Assembly: GCA_947570615.1 (NCBI GenBank)
Contig: CANOVJ010000025.1
Coordinates: 1-49,077, forward strand
Origin: an uncultured Lachnospiraceae bacterium
GTDB lineage: Bacteria; Bacillota; Clostridia; Lachnospirales; Lachnospiraceae
DNA: 49,077 nucleotides
Direction: 5' to 3'
Shown here: positions 40,945-49,077 of the stretch, piece after piece
Layout: the number at the start of each line of letters is the position of its first letter
How positions within the stretch are numbered: the first letter of the stretch is position 1
The notes under the pieces: generated by a model
Seen by the model: the letters and a program-made list of their open reading frames with translations, nothing else
Databases searched by the model: none
What the model was told of the DNA's origin: nothing
Position numbers and translations under genes: made by a program

Positions 40945-41044
40945 ATCTTTTTCTGTTTTCCTTATGTGATTGAGAAATTGCCATAGACAAAGTATTCGGG
41001 AATAATCAGCAGCTATCTGCATAAAATTTTAAGGGGAAGTTCTA

Positions 41045-41073
41045 TTGACTTTCCTCTTTGTGCCTGCTAGTAT
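41045..41073 (+). promoter_or_regulatory. Promoter of the type III antitoxin-like RNA
   Basis: TTGACT (41045-41050), a 17-nt spacer and TAGTAT (41068-41073); the following bases (AAAG) also allow TATAAA at a longer spacing. Transcription would start near 41080, directly before the tandem repeats. Confidence 0.7.
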
Positions 41074-41085
41074 AAAGATACAGGC

Positions 41086-41175
41086 AAAGTTTACCACTGA
41101 CCGATAGGTGGTATATAAATGGTCAGGTTGAAAGTTTACCGCTGACCAATATGCGGTATATAAATGGTTGGGTCG
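41086..41175 (+). repeat. Two tandem 45-bp repeats (antitoxin units)
   Basis: Units 41086-41130 and 41131-41175 match at 38 of 45 positions with no gaps. Both begin AAAGTTTACC and share GGTATATAAATGGT. Only two units without spacers exist, so this is not CRISPR. Confidence 0.95.
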
Positions 41176-41182
41176 AAAGTAT

Positions 41183-41213
41183 AGTCCTTCGCCGTAAGGT
41201 GGAGGACTTTTTC
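41183..41213 (+). terminator. Intrinsic terminator between antitoxin repeats and toxin remnant
   Basis: AGTCCTTCGCC pairs over 11 positions (two G-U) with GGTGGAGGACT around a GTAA loop, then TTTTT. Its placement between antitoxin repeats and toxin start is the standard type III arrangement, which sets the ratio of antitoxin RNA to toxin mRNA by partial read-through. Confidence 0.85.
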
Positions 41214-41231
41214 CATAATGAGGACAGTCAA

Positions 41232-41427
41232 ATGAAGAAAACGGGGTTTTATATTATAAAGGACAAGTTTTTTGGGGACATGGCTGATCCGTATCTTAAA
41301 GGTAACAAAGCAGGGAACAGACCGCATTATTATTGTGCTGACAAGCGAGCATACAGCTAAAGAGATTGAACAGAAAGCGAAAAAGGTTATGGATATAAAA
41401 AACCTTCAAAAGCAATCAAATATTTAA
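41232..41427 (+). pseudogene. Remnant of a type III toxin gene (CptN/ToxN-AbiQ-like endoribonuclease)
   Basis: The N-terminal frame (41232-41360, 42 codons) reads MKKTGFYIIKDKFFGDMADP and continues YLKGNKAGNRPHYYC, then loses sense. In the +1 frame from about 41338 the sequence reads LTSEHTAKEIEQKAKKVM, ending at TAA 41425-41427. I recall both blocks as the beginning and the late part of one toxin family of about 150-170 residues in Clostridia. The middle, roughly 80-100 codons including the catalytic region, is missing at the junction near 41330-41340. GAGGA lies 7 nt before the ATG. Full-length relatives cleave RNA and are held by the antitoxin pseudoknots. This copy should be inactive. Confidence 0.75.
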
Positions 41428-41433
41428 CAATTA

Positions 41434-41442
41434 TGTTATAGT
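41434..41442 (+). promoter_or_regulatory. Possible extended -10 promoter of the ABC exporter
   Basis: TGTTATAGT (TG, one base, TATAGT) about 50 nt before the permease gene, without a clear -35 box. Weak evidence; the exporter could also be transcribed from the antitoxin promoter by read-through. Confidence 0.3.
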
Positions 41443-41494
41443 TACAGAGAGACAGAATAAAAAGAAATCCGGCGAGAAAGGGCAGAGGTTAAAA

Positions 41495-42295
41495 ATGCGG
41501 TTCATACAGGACACACGCTCCTTTTACAGAGATATGCGGAAATATTACAGATACGCGCTACGCCTGGCAAAGGCCGATCTGGAGACAGAGGTGATCAACT
41601 CCTATCTGGACTGGCTCTGGTGGCTGCTCGAGCCGCTGGGCATGATGCTCGTCTACATTTTCATATACGGCGTCGTATTCAATGTAATCGAAGAATATTT
41701 TTCGGTATTTATTTTCATCGGCCTGACCATGTGGTCCTTTTTTGCCGGTAATATCATGGAGAGCATCTTTACCGTGCGGAAAAACAGCGGCATCATCAGC
41801 AGGATCTACATTCCGAAATATATCCTGCTGTTTTCCAGAATGCTGGTCAACGGCTTTAAGATGCTGATCTCCTTCGGCATCGTAGCCCTGATGATGCTCA
41901 TATACCGTATCCCGGTTTCCGTCCACATTTTGTACATCATCCCGATCCTGTTCGACCTTTTCCTGATCACCTTCGCCTGCGGGACCATTCTGCTCCACTA
42001 CGGCGTTTTTGTGAGGGATCTGTCCTATGTCACCAATATCGCCCTGCGGATGATGATGTACTTAAGCGGCATTTTTTATGCCGTGGGGAAGCGCATCCCG
42101 CCTCCATACGGAGAGATTATGGAAAAAGCGAACCCCATCGCCTGGCTGCTGGCGGCGGCCAGAGACGCCCTGATCTACAAAACGGCGGTATCCTGGGAGC
42201 TTCTTGTGCTGTGGGCCGTGATCGGCTCTCTCATCCTGCTCTTTGGCATATCGCTTATCTACCGGAACGAAAATTCCTACATGAGGAGCATCTGA
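41495..42295 (+). CDS. Polysaccharide ABC exporter permease (Wzm/TagG-like)
   Basis: A 266-residue ABC-2 type membrane protein with six hydrophobic segments after an amphipathic N-terminus. EVINSYLDWLWWLLEPLGMM and the final helices with NPIAWLLAAARDAL are typical of O-antigen and teichoic-acid exporter permeases. GAGG is 6 nt before the ATG. Its stop overlaps the ATPase start by 1 nt. With the ATPase it should export a lipid-linked glycan assembled by the surrounding glycosyltransferases. This is separate from the PelG route. Confidence 0.9.
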   Translation: MRFIQDTRSFYRDMRKYYRYALRLAKADLETEVINSYLDWLWWLLEPLGMMLVYIFIYGVVFNVIEEYFSVFIFIGLTMWSFFAGNIMESIFTVRKNSGIISRIYIPKYILLFSRMLVNGFKMLISFGIVALMMLIYRIPVSVHILYIIPILFDLFLITFACGTILLHYGVFVRDLSYVTNIALRMMMYLSGIFYAVGKRIPPPYGEIMEKANPIAWLLAAARDALIYKTAVSWELLVLWAVIGSLILLFGISLIYRNENSYMRSI

Positions 42296-49024: not shown

Positions 49025-49077
49025 TCGGAGTGACAAGACTTGAACTTGCGGCCTCTACTTCCCTAAAGTAGCGCTCT
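49025..49077 (-). tRNA. tRNA-Pro (anticodon AGG), 3' part, cut by the window edge
   Basis: On the minus strand there is the end of the D arm (AGAGCGC), an anticodon stem CTACT/AGTAG with loop TTAGGGA (anticodon AGG), a T arm with loop TTCAAGT, the acceptor strand CACTCCG and a discriminator A. No CCA is encoded. The 5' acceptor strand lies beyond the window. Confidence 0.8.

What the first reader, a model, noticed from the sequence alone, without database searches (positions are those of the whole stretch)
41045..41213. Hidden type III antitoxin RNA: two tandem pseudoknots with covariation, in an intergenic gap
Promoter, two 45-nt repeats, intrinsic terminator, then a toxin-like start: this is the genetic layout of ToxIN/CptIN/TenpIN systems. 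Each repeat can fold as an interleaved pseudoknot (92-97/108-113 and 98-102/121-125, counted from 41000). Of seven differences between the repeats, two form a compensatory A-U to G-C change, two leave G-U pairs and three lie in loops, so every change is compatible with the fold. The two-unit, 45-nt size agrees with what I recall of CptI. The RNA would be missed by protein-based annotation.
Basis: partly seen in the sequence, partly recalled or inferred. Interest (0 to 1): 0.9.

Follow-up and report, generated by a model that had tools for sequence, protein, structure and literature searches.

The report
Antitoxin RNA left without its toxin
The gap holds a nearly intact copy of CptI, a known knotted RNA that gut bacteria use to hold a self-poisoning enzyme in check, but the enzyme gene behind it has been destroyed by deletions, so the antidote stands alone.

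Summary
Two 45-nt repeats (41087-41131, 41132-41176) match the crystallised Eubacterium rectale CptI antitoxin at 43/45 and 40/45 bases, behind a promoter-like site and before a terminator. The next ORF is the N-terminus of the CptN toxin (PDB 4RMO, E=3.7e-16). Two corrections. First, stem 2 was read in the wrong register; the register inferred from the published loop limits (15-19/36-40 of the repeat) covaries more, and in it repeat 1 has one broken pair. Second, the toxin is dead: a 227-bp frameshifting deletion at 41335/41336 and a second of about 218 bp. About 34 codons remain in frame, and no other CptN is seen in the 95%-complete genome. So this is a solitary CptI RNA, not a working CptIN system. 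Rfam gives no hit even for an E. rectale-identical repeat, so the proposed Rfam test could not work. Toxin loss is common: 43 of 97 similar CptI arrays lack an intact CptN. The likeliest reading is toxin-first decay; a decoy kept by selection is possible, unproven.

The parts
41019..41460 (+). extent of the CptIN-derived cassette in the window (limits inferred from where similarity to relatives in other surroundings ends)
   Evidence: window alignments to relatives begin near 41019 and end near 41460; in 760 of 1670 pairwise alignments among 53 loci the left end falls 65-74 nt upstream of the first repeat; flanks differ between relatives
41045..41073 (+). promoter-like site: TTGACT, 17 nt, TAGTAT with TG before it
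   Evidence: consensus only; 2 of 67 leader sites carry a state private to the window
41087..41131 (+). CptI repeat 1 (frame of the E. rectale unit); stem 1 41093-41097/41108-41112, stem 2 41101-41105/41122-41126; one broken pair through A at 41125
   Evidence: 43 of 45 identical to E. rectale CptI; A at 41125 is private to the window, 37 of 37 intact relatives have G
41132..41176 (+). CptI repeat 2; stem 1 41138-41142/41153-41157, stem 2 41146-41150/41167-41171; all pairs standard (one G-U)
   Evidence: 40 of 45 identical to E. rectale CptI, four of the five differences form two compensatory pairs; no state private to the window
41183..41212 (+). intrinsic terminator: 11-pair stem 41183-41208 and T run
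41232..41335 (+). start of the CptN toxin gene (34 codons and 2 nt); the open frame runs on to a stop at 41358-41360 outside the toxin's frame
   Evidence: 4RMO CptN E=3.7e-16 over residues 3-41; NF047359 E=1e-9, profile 2-37 of 150, below the family cut-off
41335..41336 (+). junction of the first deletion: 227 bp missing relative to relative L019, frame lost
41336..41396 (+). out-of-frame piece of the 3' part of cptN
   Evidence: 93% identical over 61 nt to L019 and to L017
41388..41396 (+). junction of the second deletion, about 218 bp relative to L017 (arithmetic), inside a 9-nt overlap
   Evidence: overlapping alignments, sequences printed
41397..41460 (+). tail of the cassette downstream of cptN
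   Evidence: 82-91% identical to L011, L018 and L017

Best explanation
This is the remnant of a chromosomal type III toxin-antitoxin cassette of the CptIN family, in a genome whose genus also holds Parablautia muri (family Lachnospiraceae; inferred from shared DNA). Shown from sequence: both CptI pseudoknot repeats and the terminator are nearly intact behind a promoter-like site, while the CptN ribonuclease gene has lost most of its codons, its frame and, by the published residue numbers, its active site. Inferred: the toxin died first and recently, because losing a toxin is tolerated while losing its antidote is not; the RNA is still transcribed; with no CptN to cut it after A45 it stays an uncut two-unit precursor. 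Should a free CptN of the E. rectale type enter, it would be expected to cut this RNA and be trapped by it; without such a toxin the RNA is idle and will slowly decay.
For: CptI identity 43/45 and 40/45. CptN fragment. Relatives with the repeats-then-toxin order: 28 of 30 fetched CptN loci carry CptI just upstream (the model was trained on units from many of them). Two deletions in the toxin. No other CptN or CptI matched in the own genome. Few private changes: 4 in 317 sites against 37 intact relatives, so the loss looks recent. Toxin loss is widespread: of 97 E. rectale-type arrays with at least 600 nt downstream, 54 have an intact, 26 a broken and 17 no recognisable CptN. Two good repeats are found in 37 of 49 intact, 14 of 24 broken and 2 of 17 toxin-less loci, as expected if the RNA decays after the toxin. 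In the window's genus none of the 9 E. rectale-type CptI loci inspected has an intact toxin.
Against: Transcription is not shown, and the promoter is a consensus match; the leader varies at 45 of 67 sites among intact relatives. The minimum-energy fold of a single unit is no better than shuffles (z -0.61 and -0.35), though such folding cannot represent a pseudoknot. The toxin fragment scores below the NCBIfam cut-off (38 against 90 bits) and has no Pfam hit. The genome is 94.8% complete, so a CptN elsewhere or on a plasmid is not wholly excluded.
Confidence: 0.85

Rival explanations
1. The solitary CptI RNA is kept by selection as a decoy (anti-addiction): it protects the cell from CptIN cassettes or from mobile elements that carry E. 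rectale-type CptN.
For: Repeat 2 and the terminator carry no change private to the window. The 9 E. rectale-type CptI loci inspected in the genus are toxin-less or toxin-broken in mostly different surroundings, yet keep at least one recognisable repeat. Solitary units also occur on mobile DNA: behind a tRNA-Asn in a 150-kb SPbeta-like phage contig (L215) and near recombinase-like ORFs (L216, L185). A single repeat suffices for antitoxicity in E. coli (PMC4627078).
Against: Between intact and toxin-less loci rare states rise in leader and repeats alike (0.025 to 0.054 and 0.011 to 0.027 per site; ratio 0.45 and 0.49), and in the genus set the repeats change almost as fast as the leader (0.020 and 0.023; ratio 0.88); standard pairs fall from 99.0% to 96.7% and 97.5%. 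Only 2 of 17 toxin-less loci keep two good repeats. In the window one private change breaks a stem-2 pair of repeat 1 and another alters the base equivalent to G44 before the first unit (41085). Detection by pattern or model favours well-kept repeats.
Confidence: 0.15
2. The element is a cis-acting leader of the ABC-2 transporter genes that start at 41495, not an antitoxin.
For: It lies upstream of, and in the same direction as, the transporter genes.
Against: Near identity to crystallised CptI, a CptN start behind it, and relatives in unrelated surroundings.
Confidence: 0.02
3. The locus is a working type III system whose 42-residue ORF or out-of-frame piece still makes an active toxin.
For: A GAGGA and ATG are kept (by eye).
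Against: The in-frame part ends before residues 81, 85 and 104 that PMC4627078 names in the active site; two deletions.
Confidence: 0.01

Closest known systems
CptI of CptIN from Eubacterium rectale (type III toxin-antitoxin; PDB 4RMO; PMC4627078, parts 1-4 of 6 read)
   Same: Two tandem 45-nt repeats, 43/45 and 40/45 identical; same stems; loop 2 with A29 and U30 kept; repeats, then terminator, then toxin start
   Different: The toxin gene is cut down to about 34 codons in frame; repeat 1 has one broken stem-2 pair; the base equivalent to G44 before the first unit is C
ToxI of ToxIN and tenpI of TenpIN
   Same: General layout of type III systems (recalled, and PMC5086642 passages)
   Different: No match: Rfam gives no type III antitoxin hit (that Rfam holds a ToxI model is recalled), and the toxin fragment matches CptN only
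Orphan antitoxins of type II systems proposed as anti-addiction modules (review PMC7354431, passages read)
   Same: An antitoxin without its toxin, with remnant or decoy as the two readings
   Different: Here the antitoxin is an RNA that the toxin itself processes
Pseudo-ToxI of phage PhiTE (PMC3475682, abstract read)
   Same: An antitoxin-like RNA encoded without the toxin
   Different: Phage-borne and tested as counter-defence; the window locus is chromosomal and untested. The solitary CptI of phage contig L215 is the closer parallel

Membership tests
CptI antitoxin RNA | Tandem repeats of about 45 nt with the CptI sequence | tested here: met
   43/45 and 40/45 identity to E. rectale CptI
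CptI antitoxin RNA | H-type pseudoknot with stem 1 and stem 2, one-base loop 1, A-rich loop 2 | tested here: met
Register inferred from the text of PMC4627078 (figure not seen). Repeat 1 of the window has one broken pair; single-unit energy folding gives no support
CptI antitoxin RNA | Own promoter upstream and terminator downstream | tested here: inconclusive
   Terminator and promoter-like site by consensus; no expression data
CptIN toxin-antitoxin system | A full-length CptN ribonuclease gene downstream | tested here: not met
   Profile positions 2-37 of 150 only; 227-bp and about 218-bp deletions
CptIN toxin-antitoxin system | CptN cuts the RNA into 45-nt units and forms a heterotetramer with them | not testable with these tools
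   Needs RNA-seq or biochemistry
CptIN toxin-antitoxin system | Toxin kills and the cognate RNA rescues | not testable with these tools
   Bench test; no CptN found in this genome
ToxIN or TenpIN | Toxin similarity to ToxN/AbiQ or TenpN, or an Rfam type III antitoxin match | tested here: not met
   Only CptIN matched; the only Rfam match of the window at gathering score is a partial tRNA

The most novel reading that the evidence does not exclude
CptI RNAs without toxin are a recurrent class of stand-alone RNA antidotes: left behind or picked up by chromosomes, phages and integrative elements, they neutralise CptN of incoming or resident CptIN cassettes. The window would be a chromosomal example, and the SPbeta-like phage contig L215, with one CptI unit set directly behind a tRNA-Asn so that tRNA-processing enzymes rather than CptN could free it, a counter-defence example.
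Probability: 0.15. Interest if true: 0.7.

Novelty: new member of a known kind. Interest (0 to 1): 0.4.

Why it matters
It shows that a reader of raw sequence can find a structured antitoxin RNA that Rfam 15 did not report (control). It yields a set of relatives on which the CptI pseudoknot is supported by covariation, and indicates that in this family the toxin is often lost while the antidote RNA remains (43 of 97 arrays). If solitary CptI RNAs act as antidotes in trans, they would be RNA anti-addiction or counter-defence elements, testable with CptN plasmids already described for E. coli (PMC4627078).

Tried and rejected
Rfam search of the window at gathering score and of 311 nt at a relaxed threshold: only chance-level hits at the locus (ncr1575 20 bits, SNORD42 17 bits). 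The control (four CptIN loci, one with an E. rectale-identical repeat) gave no hit to a type III antitoxin family either, so this is no evidence against CptI.

Minimum-energy folding of 41080-41213 (z -3.60) is dominated by the terminator and by pairing between the repeats; single units are not better than shuffles. Not used as support.

Streptococcus phage matches to a 48-nt CptI query (11 records): one inspected (Javan25); the match lies in an ORF that looks like an HNH endonuclease (by eye), and the covariance model gives no hit there. Taken as chance. Two plasmid records matched at E=10, not followed.

Serine recombinases near toxin-less CptI: no enrichment (3 of 53 intact, 1 of 26 broken, 1 of 17 toxin-less loci, the last being L216, the source of the query; 3 of the 17 loci L063-L079).

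Selection on solitary repeats: the comparison of rare states gave no sign of special constraint after toxin loss; it is weak and biased by how loci were found.

CptN relatives of the E. rectale type: none confirmed in viral contigs, none in GenBank phages, 6 plasmid records. One search then brought in a viral contig (L227) with CptI and a CptN-like frame (by eye) that one search had not confirmed, so that zero is not complete.

First toxin classification (49 intact, 31 broken, 17 none, 25 near an end) counted natural stop codons as breaks in five arrays; corrected.

Papers: five searches; in the parts listed (30 of 44, 20 of 61, 8 of 84, 12 of 36, 20 of 1,087) I saw no paper on solitary CptI. 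The first survey of type III systems (doi 10.1093/nar/gks231) is not held, so I cannot say that toxin-less CptI loci are unreported.

Full report
WHAT WAS CHECKED. The window has two adjacent 45-nt repeats 84% identical, a promoter-like TTGACT-17-TAGTAT with TG at 41045-41073 and an 11-pair terminator stem at 41183-41208 (3 promoter-like and 2 terminator-like sites in the 681 nt scanned, against means of 1.2 and 0.6 in shuffles). A tandem of this quality is expected about 4e-12 times by chance in 49 kb with equal base frequencies. The repeats lie between a glycosyltransferase gene on the minus strand and an ABC-2 transporter permease starting at 41495.

WHAT IT IS. PMC4627078 (parts 1-4 of 6 read) reports the crystal structure of the E. 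rectale CptIN complex and prints the repeat in a primer. In that frame window repeat 1 (41087-41131) is identical at 43 of 45 positions and repeat 2 (41132-41176) at 40 of 45; a 45-mer within two mismatches is expected 7e-19 times in the window by chance. The ORF at 41232 matches CptN of 4RMO over residues 3-41 (E=3.7e-16) and the NCBIfam CptIN toxin over profile positions 2-37 of 150 (E=1e-9, 38 bits against a cut-off of 90). Pfam gives nothing for the fragment. Rfam gives nothing useful, but a control locus whose repeat equals that of E. rectale (L025) also gets no hit at its CptI, so Rfam 15 does not recognise this RNA.

STRUCTURE. From the paper's text (loop 1 = G13, loop 2 = A27-G35, cleavage after A45; the figure was not seen) I infer stem 1 as 7-11/22-26 and stem 2 as 15-19/36-40. 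On 24 distinct units that I chose from 36 distinct ones this structure, with one further outer pair, pairs in 82% of cells, with double changes at 10 of 11 pairs and a covariation score of 0.421. Both exceed their shuffles in paired cells and score; relatedness inflates such counts. In the better register the window's seven repeat differences are two compensatory pairs (10/23 and 17/38), two unpaired positions (21, 43) and one broken pair (position 39, 41125). The two forms of the repeats (A10/G17 first, G10/A17 second) are shared by relatives L011, L017, L018, L019, L021 and L030, so this covariation is ancestral and not specific to the window. A29 and U30, needed for antitoxicity in E. coli, are kept in both repeats.

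THE TOXIN IS BROKEN. Alignment to relatives shows about 88% identity to L018 and L019 from 41019 to 41335, then a jump of 227 bp in L019, then 61 nt at 93% identity, then a second jump of about 218 bp in L017 with a 9-nt overlap. The first deletion shifts the frame; the ORF stops at 41358-41360. Residues 81, 85 and 104, named for the E. rectale active site, lie beyond the remaining 34 codons. In the own genome (4.05 Mb, 94.8% complete) no other CptN (E up to 10) and no other CptI matched. Against 37 intact relatives the 317 nt up to the deletion hold four states private to the window: 41083 and 41085 in the leader, 41125 in repeat 1 and 41275 in the toxin piece. The loss therefore looks recent. 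41085 lies two bases before the first unit, at the place of G44, which stacks on Tyr104 in the crystal, so release of the first unit may be affected (inference).

RELATIVES. Of 299 genomes of the family, 52 have a CptN match and 42 exceed the family cut-off. CptI lies just upstream in 28 of the 30 best-scoring CptN loci (exceptions L007 and L031; two of the 30, L016 and L027, have a stop inside the toxin; the model was trained on units from many of these loci). With the covariance model 56 of the 299 genomes have CptI at E<=0.01. Seventeen fetched places, L063-L079, show no CptN in the stretch held (L072 lies at a contig edge; L074-L079 are weak matches of 26-33 bits), nor do L087 and L088, both at contig edges.

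TOXIN LOSS SURVEY. They hold 122 arrays. With a corrected stop rule, 97 arrays have at least 600 nt downstream: 54 intact (53 loci, L145 counted twice), 26 broken, 17 without recognisable CptN (one of them viral, L216); 25 arrays near a stretch end were set aside. Many are draft or metagenome assemblies, so some frameshifts may be errors. Two repeats matching the pattern are present in 37 of 49 intact, 14 of 24 broken and 2 of 17 toxin-less loci with at least 60 nt upstream (one of the two L145 arrays left out; intact against toxin-less p=5e-6, broken against toxin-less p=0.003, intact against broken p=0.18; not corrected for kinship). This fits a toxin lost first and an RNA that decays after it. 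Rare states per site rise from 0.025 (intact) over 0.031 (broken) to 0.054 (toxin-less) in leaders and from 0.011 over 0.011 to 0.027 in repeats; in the genus set they are 0.023 and 0.020; standard pairs make up 99.0, 98.8, 96.7 and 97.5%. This gives no sign that the repeats are specially kept.

THE GENUS. Of 37 genomes of the window's genus, 21 have CptI at E<=0.001 and 23 a CptN match at E<=0.01 (17 over the cut-off). Of seven loci from it, four share a 300-nt stretch with named records: Parablautia muri (L151), Lachnospiraceae bacterium IMSAGC_005 (L155) and two unnamed Lachnospiraceae (L178, L209), hence the genus statement (inference). Nine E. rectale-type CptI loci were read (window, L241-L244, L246-L249; L245 proved to be another type): none has an intact toxin, though in L246 the damage includes a single listed stop; each keeps one or two repeats and a terminator (by eye), and except for L244 and L247 their flanks do not match. 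One more, weaker, G305:C23, was seen only in tables. Against the pattern, G316:C19 has a full-length toxin of this kind at a contig edge where the RNA is cut off. Of 21 CptI places of other types in these genomes, 13 have a full-length CptN without stop beside them (my reading). The deficit of intact toxin against the survey (0 of 9 against 54 of 97, p=0.001) uses overlapping loci and ignores kinship.

HOW IT MOST LIKELY WORKS. Shown: a well-kept CptI gene and a destroyed toxin. Inferred: transcription from the site at 41045-41073 to the terminator yields an uncut two-unit RNA, since CptN is the enzyme that cuts it. It could bind an incoming CptN of this type. CptI recognition is specific, toxins 35-44% identical not being cross-inhibited, while near-identical repeats sit before intact CptN in relatives. 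Whether this happens, or matters, is unknown. I put 0.85 on a toxin-dead remnant and 0.15 on a decoy kept by selection; the two overlap, since a decoy would also be a remnant.

SOLITARY CptI ON MOBILE DNA. Contig L215 (IMG/VR, 150,785 bp) has one CptI unit (44.8 bits) starting at the end of a tRNA-Asn and followed by a tRNA-like sequence with CAU in anticodon position (by eye), which ARAGORN did not call. Its 920-aa protein matches proteins of SPbeta-like Bacillus phages, annotated yonO or RNA polymerase in some, at about 41%, and six Enterocloster phages are among the 35 records matched; an anti-repressor-like gene lies on the same contig. Its unit has U in place of A45. L216 has one unit with promoter and terminator (by eye) and two recombinase-like ORFs, one of which was tested and matches phage integrases. 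L185 has an E. rectale-type unit behind a further, weak CptI-like unit (E=0.25) beside a recombinase-like ORF (by eye); that stretch folds no better than shuffles. Phage-borne antitoxin mimicry is known for PhiTE and ToxI (PMC3475682, abstract). Three more viral stretches with CptI-like units turned up: L225 and L226 and L227, which seems to hold a whole CptIN.

Noticed in passing
L215 14654-14697 (IMGVR_UViG_2910649936_000002): One CptI unit without a toxin in the 189 nt held behind it sits directly behind a tRNA-Asn in a tRNA-rich stretch of a 150-kb SPbeta-like phage contig; a candidate RNA counter-defence element that tRNA processing could release.
   Followed up: partly
L216 4778-4815 (IMGVR_UViG_3300035520_001099): Single CptI unit with what look like its own promoter and terminator, no CptN, on a contig with two recombinase-like ORFs.
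   Followed up: partly
L185 187-335 (CAOKLQ010000005.1): E. rectale-type CptI unit behind one or two further stretches that look CptI-like but differ in sequence, next to a recombinase-like ORF; possibly a mixed antitoxin array, weak evidence.
   Followed up: partly
L068, L069, L071, L074; also L225, L226: A two-unit CptI-like element without CptN directly upstream of a 61-residue ORF and, in the four genomes (four genera), a 202-residue acetyltransferase-like ORF (name by eye); similarity covers about 1.7 kb, repeats partly decayed (by eye).
   Followed up: partly
window 41019 and 41460; Similarity between CptIN loci in unrelated surroundings often ends at the same place upstream (760 of 1670 pairwise alignments within 65-74 nt of the first repeat), as if the cassette moved as a unit; no target-site duplication or recombinase was recognised.
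   Followed up: partly
L227 3099-3700 (IMGVR_UViG_3300006143_000020): A viral contig of 49 kb carries two CptI units followed by a long CptN-like frame (by eye) that the protein search did not confirm.
   Followed up: no
L007 and L031: Long CptN genes without a recognisable CptI upstream; the antitoxin may be of a type the model does not see.
   Followed up: no
window 49025-49077: Partial tRNA at the end of the contig, minus strand.
   Followed up: no
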